Source: Cupriavidus metallidurans CH34
Lineage (GTDB): Bacteria > Pseudomonadota > Gammaproteobacteria > Burkholderiales > Burkholderiaceae
Assembly: GCF_000196015.1 (NCBI RefSeq)
Contig: NC_007973.1
Span: 3,534,001 to 3,598,000, forward strand
Direction: 5' to 3'
Length of the DNA: 64,000 bases
Position 1 is the first letter of the stretch; every line of letters begins with the position of its first letter. A model generated the notes under the pieces. That model was not told where the DNA came from, did no database searches, and saw only the letters and a program-made list of their open reading frames with translations. This document shows positions 1 through 53,158 of the stretch, in pieces. Made by a program: the position numbers and the translations under genes.

Positions 1-3000
1 GACAGCCGTGGCACCCGAGTTACGCACCGCGAAGCGCTCGCCGCCCACGCCGTTGAAGAAGGCTTCACCAGCGATGGCGCCGTACAGCACCGTGTTGCCG
101 ACGATGATGTTGCGGGTCGGATCGCCACGGAACTCGTGCGGAGCGCGCACGATCACGCGGCCGCCCGACAGGCCCTTGCCCACGTAGTCATTAGCGTCAC
201 CCACCAGATCCATCGTGATGCCATGTGCCAGGAACGCGGCAAACGACTGGCCGGCGGTGCCCTGGAACTGGATGTGGATCGTGTCGTCGGCCAGGCCTTC
301 GTGGCCGTGCTGCTTGGCGATCACGCCGGACAGCATCGCGCCAACGGTACGGTTCACGTTCTTCACCGGCTGGATGAACGACACGCGTTCGCCCTTGTCG
401 ATGGCCGGACGCGCCTTGGCGATCAGCACGTGGTCGAGCGCCTTGCCGGCTTCCGCCGACAGGCCGTGATCCTGCACGTCGGTGTGGTAGCGCGGCACGT
501 CGGCCGGGAACGGCGGCTGGTAGAAGATGCGGCCGAAGTCCAGGCCACGCGCCTTCCAGTGTTCGATACCGGCGCGCATGTCGAGCAGGTCGGCGCGGCC
601 GATCAGTTCGTCGAACGTGCGGATACCCAGTTGCGCCATGATCTCGCGCGCTTCTTCCGCAACGAAGAAGAAGAAGTTCACAACGTGCTCGGGCTTGCCC
701 TGGAATTTCTTGCGCAGCGCCGGATCTTGCGTGGCCACGCCCACCGGGCAGGTGTTCAGATGGCACTTGCGCATCATGATGCAGCCTTCGGCAACCAGCG
801 GCGCGGTAGCAAAACCGAACTCGTCAGCGCCCAGCAGCGCGCCGATCACGACGTCGCGGCCGGTCTTCATCTGACCGTCGGCTTGCACGCGGATACGGTT
901 GCGCAGGCCGTTCAGCATCAGCGTCTGCTGCGTCTCGGCCAGACCCAGTTCCCACGGCGTGCCGGCGTGCTTGATCGACGACAGCGGCGATGCGCCGGTG
1001 CCGCCGTCATGGCCGGCGATCACCACGTGATCGGCCTTGGCCTTGGCCACGCCAGCCGCCACGGTACCCACGCCCACTTCGGACACGAGCTTGACCGAGA
1101 TGTCCGACACCGGGTTCACATTCTTCAGGTCGTGGATCAGCTGTGCCAGATCCTCGATCGAGTAGATGTCGTGGTGCGGCGGCGGCGAGATCAGACCCAC
1201 ACCCGGCACCGAGTAACGCAGCTTGCCGATGTAGTCCGAGACTTTGTGGCCGGGCAGCTGGCCGCCTTCGCCCGGCTTGGCGCCCTGGGCCATCTTGATC
1301 TGGATCTGATCGGCCGATGCCAGGTATTCGGCAGTCACGCCGAAACGGCCCGAGGCCACCTGCTTGATCTTCGAGCGCAGCGAATCGCCCGCCTTCAATT
1401 CCAGGTCGCGCTCGATCACGCCATCGCCCAGCAGGCCCTTGAGCGTGTCGCCCTGCTTGATGGGGATGCCGCGCAGTTCGTTGCGATAGCGCTTCTCGTC
1501 CTCGCCGCCTTCGCCGGTGTTCGACTTGCCGCCGATGCGGTTCATCGCCACGGCCAGCGTCGTGTGGGCTTCAGTCGAGATCGAACCCAGCGACATGGCA
1601 CCGCTGGCGAAACGCTTGACGATGTCCTTGGCCGACTCCACTTCTTCCAGCGGAATGGCGCGGGCCGGATCGACCTTGAACTCGAACAGGCCACGCAGCG
1701 TCATGTGACGGCGGCTCTGGTCGTTGATGATGTTCGCGTATTCCTTGTACGTCTGGTACTGGCCCTTGCCATCGTCGGCGCGCACCGAGTGCTGCAGCTT
1801 GGCGATCGAGTCCGGGGTCCACATGTGTTCTTCACCGCGGATACGGAATGCGTATTCGCCGCCGGCTTCGAGCATGTTTTCCAGCACGGGGTTGCTGCCA
1901 AACGCGTCGCGATGCAGGCGCAGCGCTTCCTCGGCCACCTCGAAGATGCCGATGCCTTCGACGTTCGACGGCGTACCGTGGAAGTACTTCTGCACCAGTT
2001 CGCGCGACAGGCCGATGGCTTCGAAGATCTGGGCGCCCGTGTACGACATGTACGTGGAGATGCCCATCTTCGACATCACCTTGTGCAGGCCCTTGCCGAT
2101 CGCCTTGACGAAGTTCTTGACAGCCTTTTCCGGCGACAGGTCACCCGACAGGCCCGAGGCCATGTCGGCCAGCGTTTCCATCGCCAGGTACGGGTGCACG
2201 GCTTCAGCGCCATAGCCGGCCAGCAGCGCGAAATGGTGCACTTCGCGGGCCGAACCGGTTTCCACGACCAGGCCGGCCGACGTGCGCAGGCCCTTCTCGA
2301 CCAGGTGGTGGTGAATGGCCGACGTGGCCAGCAGCGCGGGAATGGCCACCTGGCCATCGTCCACGCGACGGTCCGTCACGATCAGGATGTTGTAGCCCGA
2401 ACGCACCGCATCCACGGCTTCCGCGCACAGCGACGCCAGGCGGGCCTCGATGCCTTCCTTGCCCCACGCCACCGGGTAGCAGATGTTCAGTTCGTACGAA
2501 CGGAACTTGCCGCCGGTGTAGTGCTCGATGTTGCGGATCTTGGCGATGTCCTTGAAGTCCAGCACGGGCTGGGACACTTCGAGGCGCATCGGCGGGTTGA
2601 TGTTGTTCAGCTCCAGCAGATTCGGCTTCGGACCGATGAACGACACCAGCGACATCACCATGTTCTCGCGGATCGGGTCGATCGGCGGGTTGGTCACCTG
2701 CGCGAAAAGCTGCTTGAAGTAGTTGTAGAGCGTCTTGTTCTTCGACGACAGCACAGCCAGCGGCGAGTCATTGCCCATCGAGCCCGTGGCTTCCTCACCG
2801 GCCAGGGCCATCGGGGCCATCAGGAACTTGACGTCTTCCTGCGTGTAGCCGAATGCCTGCTGGCGGTCGAGCAGACGCGCCACCGGCTTCTTCTCGGCGG
2901 CTACGTCCTCGGCCTTGGCCTCGAGCTCGTCGAGCTTGATGCGCACGGCGTCGATCCAGCTCTTGTACGGCTTGGCGTTGGCCAGGTTGTCCTTGAGTTC

Positions 3001-4311
3001 CTTGTCGTCGATGATGCGACCCTGCTCCATGTCGATCAGGAACATCTTGCCCGGCTGCAGACGCCACTTCTGGACGATGCGCGACTCGGGGAACGGCAGC
3101 ACGCCGGCTTCCGACGCCAGCACGACGAAATCGTCTTCGGTCACGTAGAAGCGGGCCGGACGCAGACCGTTACGGTCCAGCGTCGCGCCGATCTGGCGGC
3201 CGTCGGTGAAGCAGATCGCGGCCGGGCCGTCCCACGGCTCCATCATCGCGGCGTGGTACTCGTAGAAGGCACGACGGTTGTCGTCCATCAGCGTGTGTTG
3301 TTCCCAAGCTTCCGGGATCATCATCATCATCGCGTGGACGAGCGGGTAACCGGCCATTGTCAGCAGTTCGAGGCAGTTGTCGAACGATGCCGTATCCGAT
3401 TGGCCCGGGTAGATCAGCGGCCAGAGCTTGGGCAGGTCATCGCCGAGCACCGGCGACGAGATCGCGCCGGTACGCGCGTTCACCCAGTTCACGTTGCCCT
3501 TCACCGTGTTGATTTCGCCGTTGTGGGCAACCATGCGGTACGGGTGGGCCAGCTCCCAGGCCGGGAACGTATTGGTCGAGAAGCGCTGGTGGACCAGAGC
3601 CAGGGCCGACACGGCGCGGGCGTCCAGCAGGTCCAGGTAGTACTCGCCCACCTGGTTGGCCAGCAGCAGGCCCTTGTACACGACGGTACGGGCCGACATC
3701 GACGGCACGAAGTATTCCTTGCCGTGCTTGAGCTTGAGCGCCTGGATGGCGTGGCTGGCGGTCTTGCGGATGACGTAGAGCTTACGTTCCAGCGCGTCCG
3801 TGGTCATGATGTCGCGGCCACGACCGATGAAGATCTGGCGGATCACCGGCTCGGTCTTGCGCACGGTCGGGGACATCGGCATGTTCGCGTCCACCGGCAC
3901 ATCACGCCAACCCAGCACGACCTGGCCTTCCAGGCGCACGGTGCGTTCGAGTTCCTGTTCGCAGGCCAGACGCGATGCGTGTTCCTTAGGCAGAAAGATC
4001 ATGCCCACGCCATATTCGCCGGCGGGCGGCAGGGTCACGCCCTGCTTGGCCATTTCCTCGCGGTAGAACTGATCCGGGATCTGGATCAGGATACCGGCGC
4101 CATCGCCCATCAGCGCGTCGGCGCCCACGGCACCCCGGTGGTCCAGGTTCTCGAGGATCTTCAGACCCTGCGAGATGATTTCGTGGGATTTCTTGCCCTT
4201 GATGTGAGCCACCATGCCGACGCCGCAGGCATCGTGCTCGTTGGACGGGTCATACAGGCCCTGAGCCTGCGGGCGGGCGGCGAGTTCGGAGGATTGTTGC
4301 GAGTGGTCCAC
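1..4311 (-). CDS. gltB: Glutamate synthase (NADPH) large subunit, 3'-truncated by window edge
   Basis: Large subunit of glutamate synthase, which makes two glutamates from glutamine and 2-oxoglutarate in ammonia assimilation. About 1437 codons are present of a family usually near 1500-1580 residues; the C-terminus lies beyond base 1. The N-terminal glutamine amidotransferase region has [13 protein letters not shown], and Cys29 is the expected catalytic N-terminal nucleophile after propeptide removal. The stretch [16 protein letters not shown] (about bases 745-795) carries the three cysteines of the [3Fe-4S] cluster in the FMN domain. No ATG lies in frame upstream, so I start at the GTG at 4311; the ribosome site is weak. 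gltD would be expected just outside the window. The opposite strand holds a very long open frame that is only a GC-rich shadow. Confidence 0.96.
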
Positions 4312-46546: not shown

Positions 46547-47191
46547 TTAAGCTTTGGCCTTGACGGCCGGGGTCACGATGACCTTGCCGCCCTTGGAACC
46601 GGGGATGGCGCCCTTGACCAGCAGCAGCTTGCGCTCTGCGTCGATCTTGGCGATCTCGAGGTTTTGCACGGTGCGGGTAGCGTCACCCAGGTGACCCGTC
46701 ATGCGCTTGCCCGGGAACACGCGGCCCGGATCCTGTGCCATACCGATGGAACCCGGAACGTTGTGCGAACGCGAGTTACCGTGGGTGGCACGACCCGATG
46801 CGAAGTGGTGGCGCTTGATGGTACCGGCGTAGCCCTTACCGATGCTCACGCCCTGCACGTCGATCTTCTGGCCAACCTGGAACAGGTCGACGGAGAGCGA
46901 GCTGCCAGCTTGCAGCTCGGCAGCCTTGGCTGCATCGATGCGGAATTCTTTGATGACTTCGCCAGCTTCCACACCGGCTTTGGCGAGGTGACCCGCCAGC
47001 GGCTTGGTAACGCGGCTTGCGCGTCGGCTGCCAAAGGTGACTTGAACGGCGGTGTAACCGTCGGTCTCGTCCGTCTTGATTTGCGTCACGCGGTTGTCGC
47101 CGACCTCGACCACGGTAACGGGAATCGAATCACCGTCGTCCGTGAAAATACGGGTCATGCCAACCTTGCGACCTACAAGGCCAAGGCTCAT
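46547..47191 (-). CDS. rplC: 50S ribosomal protein L3
   Basis: 214-residue protein near the A-site entrance. [39 protein letters not shown] and the glutamine-containing [14 protein letters not shown] (PrmB methylation region) are diagnostic. I start at ATG 47191, with GGAG 6 nt upstream; the ATG at 47203 lacks a spaced site. It normally follows rpsJ directly, but here rpsJ is more than 5 kb away behind a catabolic block. Confidence 0.98.
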
Positions 47192-47296
47192 GGTTTGCTC
47201 CATTCCCAGCTGCGATTGGCCGGGGCTGATTGATACACGAAAACTGTGTGAGTGCGGGTTGCGCGAAAGAAATTGCGCACGACCAAAACGGTCCCC

Positions 47297-47318
47297 GCTA
47301 CCCGGAGAAACGGGTAGC
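47297..47318 (-). promoter_or_regulatory. Leader hairpin of the rplC operon
   Basis: 8-bp perfect stem GCTACCCG / CGGGTAGC with a 6-nt loop at the very start of the predicted transcript. A second stem TTGCGCG... / ...GCGCA follows at about 47260-47279. The leader is about 125 nt long. Such position fits an autoregulatory leader of the L4 type, but the E. coli L4-leader sequence is not recognisable. Confidence 0.45.
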
Positions 47319-47323
47319 CTTAC

Positions 47324-47352
47324 ACTATAACGCAGGAGCTTGGAAAGGGCAA
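47324..47352 (-). promoter_or_regulatory. Promoter of rplC (S10 operon remainder)
   Basis: Minus-strand TTGCCC (47352-47347), exactly 17 bp, then TATAGT (47329-47324), about 135 bp before rplC. It lies between the end of the foreign block and rplC, so the ribosomal genes downstream do not depend on rpsJ transcription. Confidence 0.75.
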
Positions 47353-47460
47353 GTTCAATTGCCGAATCCCGCGCAGGACCACGTCTGTAGCGGCAGAATT
47401 CGGCGAAATTGCGGCGTAAAGCCAACTCGTGGCGGCGCGATGGCCGCCGAAGTGTGCATT

Positions 47461-47973
47461 TCAGGCGGCCACGCGGACGAAATCGCCCCCGTAGAACACC
47501 AGCGGATCACCATCGGAGGCTGCAAAATCCTCTACCGCACCGACGATCAGCAGGTGATCGCCGAGCGGGTCGGCGCGCTCGACACGGCACGAAAGCGTCG
47601 CGAGCGCCTCGTCAAGATATGGCACGCCACGCGGACAGCGCCAGTGCGGCACACCGGCGAACTTGTCGGGCTGGGGTCTGGCGAATCGACGCGCCAGTTC
47701 GTCGTGCCCGGCCCGGAGGATGCTCACGCCGAACGCCTCTCCTGACTGAAACAGTGCCGCATTGGGCGAATGGCGCGCCAGGCTCCAAACGATCAGCGGC
47801 GGATCCAGCGACAGCGAGGCGAACGAGTTCACGGTCAGCCCCACCGGCCGGCCTTGTGGGGCGCACGCACCAATGATCGCCACGCCCGTCGCGAACCGTC
47901 CGCAGACCCTTCGCAGGGCGCGGGGATCGGGCGCGCCCGCCGGCGTGCTTGCGACTATCTTGGTCGAGTCCAT
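47461..47973 (-). CDS. Flavin reductase, reductase component of a two-component monooxygenase
   Basis: 170-residue flavin reductase of the HpaC/StyB-like FMN-binding split-barrel family, supplying reduced FAD to the oxygenase. Visible features are [16 protein letters not shown], the flavin-binding [19 protein letters not shown] and the C-terminal PLVFYGGDF. It follows the StyA-like oxygenase gene after one base, so the two are translated together. From memory it corresponds to IifD in indole-oxidising clusters. Last gene of the catabolic block; no T-run terminator is seen after it. Confidence 0.88.
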
Positions 47974-47974
47974 G

Positions 47975-49216
47975 TCACGCTGCCTTGGCCAGTTGCTGGT
48001 CGATCAACTGCTGACATGCCAACGGATCGGACCACCACGGGAAGAAATCCGGTGGATTGTCGAATCCGTTGGCAATGCGCGCGGCCAAAGCCGGCGACTG
48101 GCCCGCGGCGCCCAAGAGGCCGAGGATATGAGGCGGCGGCGGGGTCAGCAGCGAGTTGGTCCAGTTGACCACATCGCCCGCATACGCCCAGTACCGCTCG
48201 AACGTCTGGTTCATCCAGTCCGCGTCATAGGGAAGGCCGTCCCGCGCGAGGATGGCATCCAGATAGACCTTGCAGCACTTGGCGGCGTTATTCGAACCCT
48301 GACCAGTGATGGGATCGTTGACGACCACGGCGTCGGCCATGCCGAACACCAGTCGACCGGAAGGCAAGGTCAGTACCGGCTTGCGCACCGTCGGCGCGAA
48401 GCGGCCCGACAGGATGCCGTTGGCATCGGTCAGCGCCACGCGATCGCAACGCTCGGCCTCCCAGGGCAGATAGGTACGCAGGATGCGCAGGCTCTCCTCG
48501 AGGTGTGCTTCCGGCGTGCGCGCTTCGGACCAGCGGTCCATGTCGCCGCCCGGTACCCCTTCGAACACCATGATCTCGCATGGCCCGGATAGCGTAAGTG
48601 CTGGGAACACGAAGTACTCCCCTACCCCCGGGATGAGGTTGAAGCAAACCCGCGAGAAGGGTGTGCGCGGCAACATGCCGGTGACGTACGTCAGCGCCAG
48701 CGCGCGTTGTGGCGCGCTGAAAGGGCTGCGTGCGGCGTCGCGCTCGAAGCGGCTGACGATCTCCCCCTTGCCGGCGGCCAGCAGCACCAGGTCGTGGTCG
48801 AGCGTCAGGGCTTCCAACTCATTCAGCCCAACATCGACAATGCGCAGATCGCCGCCGCGTTCGACAAAGGCATCCATCCACGCCGGCATCTTCAGGCGCT
48901 GGTCCACTGCCTGCGCCACGCGGTCCAGCGGGGCCGCCCAGTCGATCAGCTTCTCGCCGCGCCGTTCCGGATGGGGAATGGCCAGGCCGATACCTTCCAC
49001 GGGCGGGCACGCTTCCTCCCACCAGTTGAGATCGAGATCGCGCTCGGTCTGCAGCGCGCGGTCGAACATGCATTGGCTGGACATCACCTTGCCCGCGCGA
49101 ATCTGGTCCGCGGTGCGATTAGACAGCAATGTCACCCGATAGCCTCTGGCCTGCAGCCCCAGGGCCATCTGTAATCCGGACTGGCCGGCACCGACGATGG
49201 CAATACGTTGGCTCAT
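47975..49216 (-). CDS. StyA-type FAD-dependent monooxygenase, probably indole/styrene epoxidase
   Basis: 413-residue group E flavoprotein monooxygenase. The N-terminal Rossmann motif is RIAIVGAGQSGLQMALGL, the FAD-binding segment DAVVVNDPITGQGSNNA is near residues 300-316, and SNRTADQIRAG follows the first beta-alpha-beta unit as in styrene monooxygenase StyA. The family forms an epoxide on the vinyl group of styrene or the 2,3-bond of indole using FADH2 from a separate reductase. The SDR and DLH-fusion partners upstream favour indole (IifC/IndA-like) over styrene, because no styrene oxide isomerase is present. GGAG precedes the ATG. Confidence 0.88.
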   Translation of the reverse strand: MSQRIAIVGAGQSGLQMALGLQARGYRVTLLSNRTADQIRAGKVMSSQCMFDRALQTERDLDLNWWEEACPPVEGIGLAIPHPERRGEKLIDWAAPLDRVAQAVDQRLKMPAWMDAFVERGGDLRIVDVGLNELEALTLDHDLVLLAAGKGEIVSRFERDAARSPFSAPQRALALTYVTGMLPRTPFSRVCFNLIPGVGEYFVFPALTLSGPCEIMVFEGVPGGDMDRWSEARTPEAHLEESLRILRTYLPWEAERCDRVALTDANGILSGRFAPTVRKPVLTLPSGRLVFGMADAVVVNDPITGQGSNNAAKCCKVYLDAILARDGLPYDADWMNQTFERYWAYAGDVVNWTNSLLTPPPPHILGLLGAAGQSPALAARIANGFDNPPDFFPWWSDPLACQQLIDQQLAKAA

Positions 49217-49249
49217 GGTTGTCTCCGTGATCTGTTTTCGGAAGGCGAT

Positions 49250-50038
49250 TCAGCCAGCCAGCTTGCCGATGGCCGGGACGTTCTGTTCAGGGCCCATGGC
49301 GGCGTATCCGCCATCCACCGCGTAGTCCGCTCCGGTGACGAAGCTGGCGTGATCCGAGCAGAGAAACAGGACCACCTGTGCGACCTCGTCCGGCTCGCCA
49401 ACGCGGCCGAGCATGTGGAAGGGCGCGGCCACGGCATCGGTGCGCGCGCGGTTGCCACCGCTGACTTCGTCCATCAGCCGGCACCAGGTCCATCCCGGTG
49501 AGACGGCATTGACGCGGATGCGGTCCGGCGCGAGGTCCATCGCCATGCTGCGCGTCAGTTGCGCCATGGCGGCCTTGGATACTGGATAGAGCCAGCGCCC
49601 GGTCTGCGCGACCCGCGCCGAGATGCTGGTGAAATTGACGATGGCACCGCCGCCACGCGTGCGCATGTGCGGGTGCACGGCCTGCGCCAGCATGACGCCG
49701 GACACCACGTTCACATCGAGTGCCGCCAGCCAGTCAGCGCGGGAAGAGCGAAAGCCATCATCCAGATAGGTGCAGGCCAGGTTGACCAGAAAATCCACGC
49801 CGCCGAATCGGCTGACCACCTGCGCCACCGCGCTGCGGACCTGATCGTCCTGGGTGATGTCGGTGGGCACGAACATGGCCATCGGTCCCAACAACGCCGC
49901 CACGCGCTCGCCGCCGGCGGCGTCGATATCGAGAATCGCCACGCGGGTGCCCGCTTCGGCAAATGCGCGGGCAACCCCCGCGCCGATCAGTGTGGCGCCG
50001 CCTGTGACGATGGCTACCTTGTCCTGCAAGCCTTGCAT
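49250..50038 (-). CDS. Short-chain dehydrogenase/reductase
   Basis: 262-residue classical SDR. The cofactor site is TGGATLIGAGVARAF and LDIDAAG, with Asp after beta-2 favouring NAD(H). Catalytic residues are Ser in NFTSIS and the YPVSK Tyr-Lys pair. The usual NNAG motif is replaced by NLAC (VNLACTYLDD). In iif-type clusters this position is taken by IifB, which oxidises the indole dihydrodiol to 3-hydroxyindolin-2-one; that role is inferred here. The ATG at 50038 has GGAG upstream; a longer frame running into the previous gene is not real. Confidence 0.88.
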   Translation of the reverse strand: MQGLQDKVAIVTGGATLIGAGVARAFAEAGTRVAILDIDAAGGERVAALLGPMAMFVPTDITQDDQVRSAVAQVVSRFGGVDFLVNLACTYLDDGFRSSRADWLAALDVNVVSGVMLAQAVHPHMRTRGGGAIVNFTSISARVAQTGRWLYPVSKAAMAQLTRSMAMDLAPDRIRVNAVSPGWTWCRLMDEVSGGNRARTDAVAAPFHMLGRVGEPDEVAQVVLFLCSDHASFVTGADYAVDGGYAAMGPEQNVPAIGKLAG

Positions 50039-50124
50039 GATGGTGTCTCCTCGGTTGATGTGCGGGGCGGCCTCTGACGTGCCGTCCCCGCGTTCCGCCC
50101 GTTCCGCAACGTGGGCCGGGGGCG

Positions 50125-51354
50125 TTACTTGCCTTCGCTCTCGCTCCAGCGCGCCATCAGCGTGTTGGATGGCAGGGTTTCGTCCAGCAGCTTGCGTGCC
50201 GTCTCGACTCCGGCCACGGGTAGCCCCTTGGGATCGAGCAGGCCGACCTGTACCAGCACGCTGGCCTGGTCCCAGTAGATATGCTCGTGATAGAGCTTGT
50301 CGCCACGGAACTTGATGATGGCGATCAGCGGGATCTCTACGCGCTTGCCGGTTGGAGGCACGCCGGGGAGCATCCAGTCGATCTCGCAGGTGTGGGTAAA
50401 GCAGAAGAGGATCTCGTCCACTACCTGGCTGGCGCCGATCGTGCGGGACAGCGGAATCAGCGTGGTGTCGGGCGGATTGCTGTGGACGAAGTGGTGCTGG
50501 TAGAAGCGCTTGAGCTGCCGGTAGCCCACGCCACCGGTCATCGTCGGGATGTGGTTGACGTATGGCTCGGCCACCATCGTCGCCATCGTGGCATCGACAT
50601 CGCGCGTGGCGAATTCGTACTCGCAATGCTTATCCCACAGCGCGGAGAAATCGTAGTGCGGGCCCATCTCGGCGCGGAACGCCGCGATCGAACGCTGGTG
50701 CGCCATCAGGGCCGAGGCCTTGTCGAAGTGCTCGCCGCCGGTGCGCGCGAACGCGTGATCCATCCCCGGATAGACGTACAGTTCGACACCGGGTTGGCCG
50801 GACAGCGCTTCGCGGATGCTCGCCTGCGCCTCGGGCGGGCAGAAGCCATCGCGCTCGGCGACATGCAGTACCAGCCGGCCACGGATGTTTCTGGCCTCGC
50901 CAAGCGCGCGCTCGATACCAACCCCGTAGTAGCCGACGGCACAGGCTACGTCCGGCAGTCGGCACGCCGCCAGATAGGCCAGCTTGCCGCCGAGGCAGAA
51001 GCCGAGCACACCGGTCTGGCCAGCGCATTCGGGGCGTTGGCGTAGCGTGGCGAGAGCGGCGCCGACGTCCTGCACGCCCTTATCTTCGTCAAATTGCTGG
51101 TACAAGCCGAGTGCACGCTGGAAGTCCGCCCCACGGTCGGATAGCTCGATCCCGTGCTCGATGCGCCAGAACAGATCCGGCACCAGCACGGTATAGCCTT
51201 CCTCGGCATAGTAGTCGGCCACCTGCCGCATGGTGGCATTGACGCCGAAGATCTCCTGGCACAGCACGATGCCAGGGCCCTTGCCTCCTGCCGGAGTGGC
51301 GAGATAGCCACTGAAGTTGCCGTCCTGGGTCTGGATCTGGATAGTCTGGCCCAT
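50125..51354 (-). CDS. Dienelactone hydrolase / SnoaL-like fusion protein
   Basis: 409-residue two-domain protein. Residues 1-235 are an alpha/beta-hydrolase of the dienelactone hydrolase family with nucleophile motif GFCLGG, Asp in AERDGFCPP and His in PGMDHAF. Residues 250-409 form a SnoaL/NTF2-like cone fold (VNHIPTMTGGVGYRQLKRFY, IIKFRGDKLYHEHIYWDQ). From memory the first gene of indole iif clusters (IifA), which turns 3-hydroxyindolin-2-one into anthranilate without cofactor, has this kind of architecture. ATG 51354 has AGGAG upstream. First gene of the minus-strand operon. Confidence 0.82.
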   Translation of the reverse strand: MGQTIQIQTQDGNFSGYLATPAGGKGPGIVLCQEIFGVNATMRQVADYYAEEGYTVLVPDLFWRIEHGIELSDRGADFQRALGLYQQFDEDKGVQDVGAALATLRQRPECAGQTGVLGFCLGGKLAYLAACRLPDVACAVGYYGVGIERALGEARNIRGRLVLHVAERDGFCPPEAQASIREALSGQPGVELYVYPGMDHAFARTGGEHFDKASALMAHQRSIAAFRAEMGPHYDFSALWDKHCEYEFATRDVDATMATMVAEPYVNHIPTMTGGVGYRQLKRFYQHHFVHSNPPDTTLIPLSRTIGASQVVDEILFCFTHTCEIDWMLPGVPPTGKRVEIPLIAIIKFRGDKLYHEHIYWDQASVLVQVGLLDPKGLPVAGVETARKLLDETLPSNTLMARWSESEGK

Positions 51355-51673
51355 GCCTTTTGCTCCTGTATGTTTTGTGGGTATGGCCGCCGTGCGTGCC
51401 CCGCCGTTGCCTTCATGATCGGAGACCCGCACCGCAGCAAACTAGCCACCTAGTGCAGCGGCTATCCGATTAGTGCAGGAAAGTGTGTCCCCGTTCAAGG
51501 GGGACGTTGGGGCCGGGGACGAATCCGCTATAGTGGTGCGCAGCGAATCAGCCGCTGCGCACTGTGCCAGCCGGCTGACAACAGCCGGAATCACGCGGCG
51601 CGCACGTTCGGTCAAGGTGGCGATCCACCGGCAGAAGCGGCAGCGCCCGGGCCGGCCCCGCCAGGAGCGAGAC
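51355..51673. promoter_or_regulatory. Divergent control region of the catabolic block
   Basis: 319 bp between the DLH-fusion gene (minus) and the AraC-type regulator (plus). It contains two copies of TAGTGCAG at 51451-51458 and 51471-51478, on the same strand and 20 bp apart, with GGCTA between them. This resembles AraC/XylS operators. An open frame through 51473-51673 continues into the regulator but lacks a ribosome site. Confidence 0.55.
51451..51478. repeat. Direct repeat TAGTGCAG x2, 20-bp spacing
   Basis: Two identical 8-bp copies, two helical turns apart. They lie about 100 bp upstream of the DLH-fusion start and 200 bp upstream of the regulator start. Likely binding half-sites for the AraC-type protein. 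Confidence 0.55.
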
Positions 51674-52687
51674 ATGCCGCAGATGCCCCCCACTGCCCCG
51701 GCCATGGTGCCGCTGGCAGGTGCCCTGCTTCACGACACCGGCCGTCTGGTGTTCGATTCGGACGACCTCGACACCACGCGTGCACGGGTTGCGTCGGTCT
51801 TCAAGCCCCATCGACTCACCCTGCATGGCAATGCTCTGCGTGCGCGAATGCATCACGTGCCCGTGGGGGCAGTGTCCTTCAACCGGCTCAGTTACGGCGG
51901 AGACGTGACAATCGACCCAGGCCCGCTCGGCGATTTCTTGCTGATACAGATGCCGATGGCTGGCCAGGCGGATATTCACTGCGGCGGGCAGCACGTTGTC
52001 TCGGATTCGGAATGCGCCTCGGTGCTGACGCCGAGCGAACCCCTGCGGATGCGATGGAGCGCCGACAACGACCAACTCATCGTACGCATCGAACGCAGCG
52101 CGCTGGAACGCGTTTGCGCGGCATATCTGGGCCGGCGACCGAACCAGCCGCTGCGCTTCCAGCTCGGCATGGCCTGGCGCAACACGGGGTGGCAGTCGCT
52201 CGTCCAGTATCTTGCCGACACCTTGAACCACGCGCCGCAAACCGCGAGCCACCCGCTAACTGCCTGCCAGCTCGAGCAGTTGGCAATCGGCACATTGCTG
52301 ACGTTCCAGCCGCACAGCCTGTCCGACGTGTTACGCGAACACGGCAAGCCGCTGGCGCCAAGGCACGTGAAGGTTGTCGAGGAATACATCCATGCCCACG
52401 CCGATGCAGCGGTGACGCCCGCGCTGCTCGCCGAGATGGCGGGGGTCAGTCTGCGCAGCCTGTATGCGGGATTCCGCGAGCATCGGGGCCTGAGCCCGAT
52501 GACCTATCTGCGCACGGTCCGCCTGGAACGGGTGAGGCAGGATCTGCTCAATGACGCATCGCTGTCTTCGGTAACGGCCGCCGCGTTGCGCTGGGGCTTT
52601 GCTCACCTGGGGCGATTCAGCGTCGAATACCGGCGTGCGTTTGGGGAGTGCCCGGGAGAGACCTTGCGACGACGCGGTCGGGGCTGA
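51674..52687 (+). CDS. AraC/XylS-family transcriptional regulator
   Basis: 337-residue regulator with an N-terminal AraC-binding-like effector domain (FNRLSYGGDVTIDPGPLGDF, about residues 70-95). The C-terminal double helix-turn-helix domain covers about residues 235-335 (LLAEMAGVSLRSLYAGFREH; GFAHLGRFSVEYRRAFGECP). Divergent from the catabolic operon, it is its probable activator, as IndR/IifR is in known indole clusters (from memory). The ATG at 51674 has AGGAG 8 nt upstream; a 67-codon upstream extension is not supported. Confidence 0.9.
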   Translation: MPQMPPTAPAMVPLAGALLHDTGRLVFDSDDLDTTRARVASVFKPHRLTLHGNALRARMHHVPVGAVSFNRLSYGGDVTIDPGPLGDFLLIQMPMAGQADIHCGGQHVVSDSECASVLTPSEPLRMRWSADNDQLIVRIERSALERVCAAYLGRRPNQPLRFQLGMAWRNTGWQSLVQYLADTLNHAPQTASHPLTACQLEQLAIGTLLTFQPHSLSDVLREHGKPLAPRHVKVVEEYIHAHADAAVTPALLAEMAGVSLRSLYAGFREHRGLSPMTYLRTVRLERVRQDLLNDASLSSVTAAALRWGFAHLGRFSVEYRRAFGECPGETLRRRGRG

Positions 52688-52714
52688 GCCAGGCAAGAAA
52701 CCGGGTCACCACAA

Positions 52715-52747
52715 AACAAAAACGGCGAACCGAAGTTCGCCGTTTTG
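52715..52747. terminator. Bidirectional terminator between the AraC gene and rpsJ
   Basis: 12-bp perfect stem AAAACGGCGAAC / GTTCGCCGTTTT. On the minus strand it has a UUCG tetraloop and is followed by TTTTTGTTTTG. It ends rpsJ transcripts and, on the plus strand, the regulator transcript. Confidence 0.92.
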
Positions 52748-52781: not shown

Positions 52782-53090
52782 TTACACCTTGATCTCGACG
52801 TCCACGCCTGCCGGCAGGTCGAGCTTCATCAGCGCGTCGACGGTCTTATCGGTCGGGTCGACGATGTCCATCAGGCGCTGGTGAGTGCGGATCTCGAACT
52901 GATCGCGGCTGGTCTTGTTGACGTGCGGCGAACGCAGGATGTCGAAGCGCTGGATACGGGTCGGCAGGGGCACGGGACCCTTGACGATAGCACCGGTACG
53001 CTTGGCGGTATCCACGATTTCGGCTGCCGACTGGTCGATCAGGCGATAGTCGAAAGCCTTCAGGCGGATACGGATCTTCTGGTTCTGCAT
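52782..53090 (-). CDS. rpsJ: 30S ribosomal protein S10 (NusE)
   Basis: 102-residue head protein and transcription antitermination factor. [18 protein letters not shown] and [20 protein letters not shown] are diagnostic. It lies between two terminators, one before it (53131-53158) and one after (52715-52747), and is cut off from rplC by the catabolic block. Confidence 0.98.
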
Positions 53091-53130: not shown

Positions 53131-53158
53131 AAAGGGGACATGCCCGCGGGCATGTCCC
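53131..53158 (-). terminator. Terminator or attenuator between tuf and rpsJ
   Basis: 24-bp perfect palindrome GGGACATGCCCG / CGGGCATGTCCC just after the tuf stop, followed on the minus strand by CTTTTATCC. The short T-run suggests partial termination. Confidence 0.65.

What the first reader, a model, noticed from the sequence alone, without database searches (positions are those of the whole stretch)
47430..52747. Indole-type oxidation operon inserted inside the S10 ribosomal protein operon
rpsJ (52782-53090) and rplC (46547-47191) are adjacent in most bacterial genomes. Here a five-gene block separates them: DLH/SnoaL fusion, SDR, StyA-like monooxygenase, flavin reductase, and a divergent AraC regulator. 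Content and order match, from memory, iifABCD plus its regulator (indole to 3-hydroxyindolin-2-one to anthranilate). A catabolic cassette in one of the most conserved operons is striking and raises the question of how ribosomal expression survived.
Basis: partly seen in the sequence, partly recalled or inferred. Interest (0 to 1): 0.85.

Follow-up and report, generated by a model that had tools for sequence, protein, structure and literature searches.

The report
Indole-degradation operon lodged between ribosomal genes
In more than half of the Cupriavidus genomes examined, an operon that looks like the known indole-to-anthranilate pathway sits between two ribosomal protein genes; it is an old insertion at a point where the ribosomal genes were apparently already read as two separate units, and several species have since kept only one of its genes there.

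Summary
In detail: a five-gene block (AraC regulator, DLH-SnoaL, SDR, indole-type monooxygenase, flavin reductase) lies between rpsJ and rplC. By gene order, families and residue signature it is an iif/ind operon.

It is not a recent insertion and, by sequence signals, breaks no transcription unit. The full block is at the same site in 31 of 56 Cupriavidus junctions; one more has a split oxygenase, one keeps three genes, 8 keep only DLH-SnoaL, 15 are empty. A terminator follows rpsJ in 56 of 56 Cupriavidus and 6 of 6 genomes of genus g23. An rplC promoter fits a strict pattern in 50 of 55, with near variants by eye in the rest. The block sits between them.

New points: (1) 39 of 40 block-bearing genomes show no terminator-like site between the catabolic genes and the rplC promoter, so read-through into the S10 operon is possible. 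(2) DLH-SnoaL (iifA) alone arose about five times and stays under purifying selection. (3) All 11 second iif-type clusters found lack iifA; 7 of those genomes lost the local oxygenase yet kept iifA here. Whether iifA serves the remote cluster is untested.

The parts
52782..53090 (-). rpsJ (ribosomal protein S10); last gene of the upstream (tuf-side) unit
   Evidence: PF00338 125.6 bits, NF001861 172.3 bits
52719..52746 (.). Intrinsic terminator after rpsJ (12 pairs, T tail); A-rich on its other side, so it may also end araC
   Evidence: rpsJ direction 56 of 56 Cupriavidus and 6 of 6 g23 genomes; araC direction 28 of 32 full-block genomes (the one with split oxygenase included), 7 of 9 partial ones, 5 of 15 empties
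51674..52687 (+). AraC-family regulator (iifR-like), divergent from the operon, convergent with rpsJ
   Evidence: PF14525 175.1 bits, PF12833 80.7 bits; AndR model 191.6 bits, under its 350 cut-off; start ATG preceded by AGGAG
51429..51479 (-). Conserved element upstream of iifA, candidate AraC-type operator (GGATAGCCGCTGC ... GGCTAGTTTGCTGC)
   Evidence: Compared by eye over 41 upstream sequences; regulator binding is inferred
50125..51354 (-). iifA-like DLH-SnoaL fusion
   Evidence: PF01738 147.1 bits, PF12680 31.6 bits; the long fusion found once per genome, at this site, in 41 of 60 Cupriavidus (G052 in two pieces)
49250..50038 (-). iifB-like short-chain dehydrogenase
   Evidence: PF13561 208.9 bits; NF006121 436.5 bits; in-frame ATG upstream of my query seen
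47975..49216 (-). iifC-like group E flavoprotein monooxygenase
   Evidence: PF17885 148 bits; best solved relative 7z4x, 619.8 bits over residues 3-405; S46 Q48 M50 V73 I76
47461..47973 (-). iifD-like flavin reductase
   Evidence: PF01613 124.6 bits
47353..47460 (-). Spacer between the catabolic operon and the rplC promoter, no terminator-like site found
   Evidence: None in the window; none in 39 of 40 block-bearing genomes by a search that finds the rpsJ terminator in 56 of 56
47324..47352 (-). Predicted rplC promoter (TTGCCC-17-TATAGT)
   Evidence: Only promoter-like hit (1.2 expected by chance); strict pattern in 50 of 55 Cupriavidus and 6 of 6 g23 junctions
47192..47323 (-). rplC leader, with a conserved stretch before the ATG; no Rfam family reached its gathering score
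   Evidence: Sequences; Rfam
46547..47191 (-). rplC (ribosomal protein L3), first gene of the downstream S10 unit
   Evidence: TIGR03625 285.2 bits

Best explanation
This is an iif/ind-type indole degradation operon. IifC and IifD oxidise indole, IifB makes 3-hydroxyindolin-2-one, IifA opens the ring to anthranilate, and a divergent AraC-type regulator switches it on. It entered, most simply once, in an ancestor of the main Cupriavidus clade, between the rpsJ terminator and the rplC promoter, a point that already separated two ribosomal transcription units. Both signals were kept, so ribosomal expression was not interrupted. The operon points the same way as the S10 operon and has no terminator-like site before the rplC promoter, so an induced transcript may run on into rplC. 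Later lineages lost it completely (up to four times) or kept only iifA (about five times). Shown here: anatomy, families, distribution, conserved signals, lone iifA. Taken from published work on relatives: the reactions. Inferred only: that the signals work as predicted, regulator binding, and read-through.
For: Families and order. Residues S46, Q48, M50, V73, I76, as listed for indole monooxygenases in PMC13101512 (passages). Best solved relative 7z4x, which I recall as VpIndA1. Published iif operon with the same order and an AraC regulator: PMC4577076 (passages). Cupriavidus sp. IDO (G055, matched to L122 by its 79834-base contig) is described as an indole degrader with more than one iif cluster in PMC6221969 (passages) and carries the block here. 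Same site in 31 of 56 junctions. Outside the genus: none of the 59 other loci among the best 80 (of 481) DLH-SnoaL loci shows rpsJ or rplC in its stretch; 20 of 20 outgroup junctions show no block gene, 18 of them 145-289 bp long. Terminator and promoter. Loss scars of the flavin reductase in two empty junctions, G039 and G007. Block tree shares 9 of 27 splits with the ribosomal tree against at most 2 in 200 label shuffles.
Against: No activity, transcript or binding data. The two trees share only 9 of 27 splits, and G058, G017 and G043 carry a block or iifA of another clade's type, so exchange within the genus, or weak resolution of the ribosomal tree, is likely. Remnants show loss only for G007 and G039; G018, G036, G005, G027, G028, G004 and G009 show none and are read as losses from the tree alone, where G005/27/28 and G018/36 could be primary absence. 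In the other outgroups only 4 of 14 show the terminator and 4 of 13 the strict promoter pattern. Taken singly, the promoter and terminator scans of the window do not exceed chance; the weight rests on conservation. The own genome has no AntA over its cut-off (476 against 671.9 bits), so the fate of anthranilate is open.
Confidence: 0.8

Rival explanations
1. The block is a recent, species-specific insertion that broke the S10 operon, with ribosomal expression rescued afterwards.
Against: Full block at the same site in 31 of 56; terminator and promoter already present in empty and g23 junctions; synonymous divergence of 0.59 between the window's block and that of G006, its nearest relative by oxygenase.
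Confidence: 0.03
2. The operon acts mainly on another substrate (a substituted indole, skatole or styrene) and indole is incidental.
For: PMC13101512 describes separate skatole enzymes among group E oxygenases (passages). L128, a close outside relative, has its cluster among other catabolic genes.
Against: Indole-type and not styrene-type residues; StyA model 209.7 bits against a 550 cut-off; full iifABCD order.
Confidence: 0.12
3. The lone iifA has a role of its own, unrelated to the remote second cluster, or simply has not yet decayed.
For: G015 and G053 keep iifA with no iifC match at E<=1e-20. All 11 second-cluster genomes have an isatin hydrolase relative, absent in the 6 other genomes of that search, so an iifA-free route is possible there. 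The operator-like element is lost in G041, G043 and G053 and only half kept in G015 and G034. The highest dN/dS values (0.107, 0.141) are in pairs with iifA-only genomes.
Against: iifA is kept in 7 of 7 second-cluster genomes that lost the local oxygenase, against 2 of 11 others (genome counts, not independent events).
Confidence: 0.45

Closest known systems
iif operon of Acinetobacter (A. baumannii ATCC 19606; Acinetobacter sp. O153)
   Same: iifA-B-C-D order and families (DLH, SDR, flavoprotein oxygenase, flavin reductase) and an AraC regulator transcribed oppositely (PMC4577076, passages)
   Different: No iifE porin at this site (269 bp from iifD to rplC); the regulator lies upstream, as that paper says for P. 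syringae, not downstream; the location is between ribosomal genes
ind/iif cluster of Cupriavidus sp. SHE and IDO
   Same: Same genus; IndA of SHE acts on indole and IDO has more than one cluster (PMC6221969, passages); IDO's S10-site block is seen here
   Different: The ribosomal location did not appear in the listings or in the passages I saw; SHE's own sequence and its 2017 paper were not seen
Styrene monooxygenase StyA/StyB
   Same: Two-component group E flavoprotein monooxygenase
   Different: Below the StyA equivalog cut-off; carries indole-type residues
dhoAB/ipoABC of the P. syringae WHOP region
   Same: Homologues of iifA/iifB and iifC/iifD proposed to turn indole into anthranilate (PMC12538310, passages)
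   Different: Two operons with a porin, on a genomic island

Membership tests
iif/ind indole degradation operon | iifA-iifB-iifC-iifD order, families as published | tested here: met
   against PMC4577076 (passages); compared by family and order, not by aligning the Acinetobacter proteins
iif/ind indole degradation operon | AraC-family regulator transcribed oppositely | tested here: met
   51674-52687(+)
iif/ind indole degradation operon | Induction by indole | not testable with these tools
   Needs expression data
iif/ind indole degradation operon | Indole to anthranilate activity | not testable with these tools
   Needs assays
iif/ind indole degradation operon | iifE (MetA-type porin) in the operon; PMC6221969 says its role was ruled out, so I do not treat it as defining | tested here: not met
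   Only 269 bp between iifD and rplC
Indole monooxygenase (group E) | S46-Q48-M50-V/I73-I76 of the published signature (PMC13101512) | tested here: met
   All five at the exact positions by the protein's own numbering
Indole monooxygenase (group E) | A96, sixth position of that signature | tested here: inconclusive
   Position 96 is proline and 95 alanine; it fits only with a one-residue offset that I did not resolve
Styrene monooxygenase StyA (NF045732) | Score over the equivalog cut-off | tested here: not met
   209.7 bits against 550
S10 operon, uninterrupted | rpsJ and rplC in one transcription unit | tested here: inconclusive
   Sequence signals speak against it: terminator 56 of 56, promoter 50 of 55 by strict pattern; no transcript data

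The most novel reading that the evidence does not exclude
A catabolic pathway has come apart around a ribosomal junction. The gene for its ring-opening step, iifA, is kept alone between rpsJ and rplC and completes indole degradation begun by a remote second cluster that lacks iifA. In the complete forms, indole-induced transcription reads on into the S10 operon, tying ribosomal protein supply to this substrate.
Probability: 0.25. Interest if true: 0.7.

Novelty: new variant of a known kind. Interest (0 to 1): 0.5.

Why it matters
It suggests that a catabolic operon can persist across much of a genus beside highly conserved ribosomal genes if it lies between a terminator and a promoter and points the same way. 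It gives a natural series (empty, full, partly deleted, iifA alone) at one orthologous site for testing how gene clusters decay and which enzyme is kept. It also gives content to the published remark that Cupriavidus sp. IDO has more than one iif cluster: the one here has iifA, the other has an isatin-hydrolase relative instead.

Tried and rejected
Recent insertion: rejected. StyA styrene monooxygenase: rejected. Rfam leader or riboswitch at the junction: nothing reached a gathering score; three weak rows. The idea that second clusters without an isatin hydrolase need iifA: at first striking, since all 5 second clusters lacking it are in genomes with iifA alone at the S10 site; but each of those 5 genomes has an isatin-hydrolase relative elsewhere at 62-68% identity, so I no longer lean on it. 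Shared operator with the second cluster: both upstream regions hold GGATAGCnGC by eye, but this was not tested against chance, and the element is lost in G041 and G043, which do have a second cluster. Block remnants in the other empties: G016 gave only matches of about 30 bases in both orientations, which look like a repeat and not a remnant. Anthranilate dioxygenase as the next step: no AntA over its cut-off; the 2-aminobenzoyl-CoA route was not searched. No structure prediction, homologous-protein search or search of the phage, plasmid or E. coli collections was run.
Full report
WHAT IS THERE. Between rpsJ (52782-53090, -) and rplC (46547-47191, -) lie five open genes: an AraC-family regulator (+), then DLH-SnoaL, SDR, StyA/indole-type monooxygenase and flavin reductase (all -). 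By start codon I place the regulator at 51674-52687, the DLH-SnoaL gene at 50125-51354 and the SDR at 49250-50038. My queries for these three began up to a few codons off those starts, which should not alter the matches. With these starts the gaps inside the operon are 86, 33 and 1 bp (one search printed 95 for the first, from my earlier SDR start); 269 bp separate the flavin reductase from rplC and 94 bp the regulator's stop from the rpsJ stop.

WHAT IT ENCODES. Order and families match the iif operon described in PMC4577076 (passages). The monooxygenase scores 209.7 bits against the StyA model's cut-off of 550, has 7z4x as best solved relative (619.8 bits; I recall it as the indole monooxygenase VpIndA1), and carries S46, Q48, M50, V73 and I76 of the indole-type signature quoted in PMC13101512 (passages). 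The sixth position fits only with a one-residue offset. In 33 aligned sequences (31 of the genus plus L128 and L129) S46, Q48, M50 and V73 are invariant and I76 is in 32 of 33. The pathway steps (dihydrodiol, 3-hydroxyindolin-2-one, anthranilate) are taken from PMC6221969 (passages) and were not tested.

WHICH GENOMES CARRY IT. I searched 60 genomes of the genus; 56 gave rpsJ and the other four were left out. The junction was read in 55 fetched stretches and the window. 31 have the full block (G049 is cut by its contig end); G038 has the oxygenase in two pieces; G002 keeps DLH-SnoaL, SDR and flavin reductase; 8 have DLH-SnoaL alone (G015, G017, G029, G034, G041, G043, G052, G053; in G052 its frame is broken, as are rplC and its second oxygenase, in an assembly of 86% completeness); 15 are empty.

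OUTSIDE THE GENUS. Of 200 genomes of the family, 37 have the monooxygenase at E<=1e-60, 25 of them in other genera at 41-71% identity. For 16 of these 25 the rpsJ row is listed, and there the oxygenase is on another contig; for the other 9 the row was cut from the listing. A scan of named genomes gave 481 DLH-SnoaL relatives, of which the best 80 were kept. 21 of the 80 have rpsJ beside the gene and 59 show neither rpsJ nor rplC in their stretch. Twenty outgroup junctions show no block gene: 18 are 145-289 bp, one has another 3.1 kb insert (L075), and one shows no rplC in the stretch (L074).

HOW RIBOSOMAL EXPRESSION IS KEPT. A terminator follows rpsJ in 56 of 56 Cupriavidus junctions, whatever their state, and in 6 of 6 genomes of genus g23 (unnamed; I think Ralstonia), but in only 4 of 14 other outgroups. 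An rplC promoter (TTGCCC-17-TATAGT in the window) fits a strict pattern in 50 of 55 Cupriavidus, 6 of 6 g23 and 4 of 13 other outgroups; the five Cupriavidus misses show near variants by eye. Scans of the window alone do not exceed chance (1 promoter-like site found, 1.2 expected; 7 terminator-like, 5.6 expected). The conservation is the evidence. The block lies between the two signals. The terminator also reads as one in the regulator's direction in 28 of 32 full-block genomes (G038 included), 7 of 9 partial ones and 5 of 15 empties.

A POSSIBLE LINK TO THE S10 OPERON. The search that finds the rpsJ terminator in 56 of 56 finds a terminator-like site between the last catabolic gene and the rplC promoter in 1 of 40 block-bearing genomes, G006. 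No predicted signal in the other 39 would stop an induced iif transcript from running into rplC. This is inference; there are no transcript data, and factor-dependent termination was not examined.

HISTORY. A tree of six ribosomal genes (2979 nt; 55 of the 56 genomes plus 7 outgroups) puts six empty genomes outside all carriers; the other nine empties nest inside. Under a single gain, the block was lost completely four times and the oxygenase ten times, those four included. Flavin-reductase remnants in G039 (80.7% over 197 bp) and G007 (75.2% over 133 bp) show loss there; the other nested empties show none. Block and ribosomal trees share 9 of 27 splits over 30 genomes, against at most 2 in 200 label shuffles. 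G058, G017 and G043 are placed differently in the two kinds of tree, so the site may also have been exchanged within the genus.

IIFA ALONE. The lone DLH-SnoaL arose in {G053}, {G017, G043, G052}, {G029}, {G034, G041} and {G015}. It is a full-length frame in 7 of these 8 genomes. In 18 pairs that I chose, dN/dS is 0.04-0.14 for the 11 pairs that include a reduced genome (iifA-only or G002) and 0.03-0.09 for the 7 full-full pairs. The long fusion occurs once per genome, at this site, in 41 of 60 genomes; the other hits end by residue 252 and so cover essentially the DLH domain.

THE SECOND CLUSTER. Eleven genomes have a second oxygenase at about 59% identity (63% and 49% for the two pieces in G052) elsewhere. 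All 11 clusters are regulator, SDR, oxygenase, reductase, followed by a gene that I call phytoene-desaturase-like from its look, without a family search; none has DLH-SnoaL. Six also hold a gene whose best solved relative is an isatin hydrolase (1e-116); the other five genomes have relatives of it elsewhere. Seven of the 11 lost the local oxygenase but kept iifA, against 2 of 30 iifA-bearing genomes without the second cluster (Fisher p=0.0004). Among genomes without an intact local oxygenase, leaving out the six basal empties, iifA is kept in 7 of 7 with and 2 of 11 without the second cluster (p=0.002). These tests ignore relatedness. Counted as events from the same call, iifA was kept in 4 of 4 oxygenase losses with the second cluster and in 2 of 6 without, so the link is suggestive only. 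G015 and G053, with iifA but no oxygenase, speak against it.

VERDICT. A known kind of pathway in an unusual, old and explicable place, with two open questions worth testing: read-through into the S10 operon, and why iifA alone is kept. The literature searches showed no mention of the ribosomal location in their listings or in the passages read from five papers. The library holds only open-licence papers; of the two 2017 papers, that on Acinetobacter O153 was not held and that on Cupriavidus SHE was not looked up.

Noticed in passing
L075 (G105, genus g14), 560 to about 3700: Another genus has a different 3.1 kb insert between rpsJ and rplC, with a large FAD-dependent oxidoreductase-like frame and an outer-membrane-like frame (named by eye); the junction seems permissive beyond Cupriavidus.
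   Followed up: partly
L039 (G030), between rpsJ and araC: About 1.9 kb extra DNA with broken frames that resemble a tannase/feruloyl-esterase-like gene (named from memory), between rpsJ and the regulator.
   Followed up: partly
L142, L158, L171, L172, L174, L177-L179, L181, L183-L186 (Achromobacter, Bordetella): An iifA-like DLH-SnoaL gene near an AraC gene, but no iifC match within the fetched stretch; iifA may partner other oxygenases there.
   Followed up: no
window 53135-53158, - strand: A terminator-like hairpin also lies between tuf and rpsJ, so rpsJ itself may be partly uncoupled from tuf.
   Followed up: no
L098 (G049), 798-3395: A third kind of oxygenase cluster (about 41% oxygenase, reductase, SDR) in a genome that also has the S10-site block; possibly a skatole-type enzyme.
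   Followed up: no
L128, 6147-19072: Burkholderia sp. IMCC1007 has a close iifABCD relative (74-83%) inside a longer run of catabolic-looking genes (aldehyde and alcohol dehydrogenase, ferredoxin-type reductase, thiolase- and CoA-ligase-like frames, named by eye), with no rpsJ or rplC in the stretch.
   Followed up: partly
L102 (G097, genus g23), L104 (G128, genus g24): iifBCD-like clusters without iifA in the stretch but with an isatin-hydrolase-like and a phytoene-desaturase-like gene, like the Cupriavidus second cluster; suggests two interchangeable ring-opening modules.
   Followed up: partly
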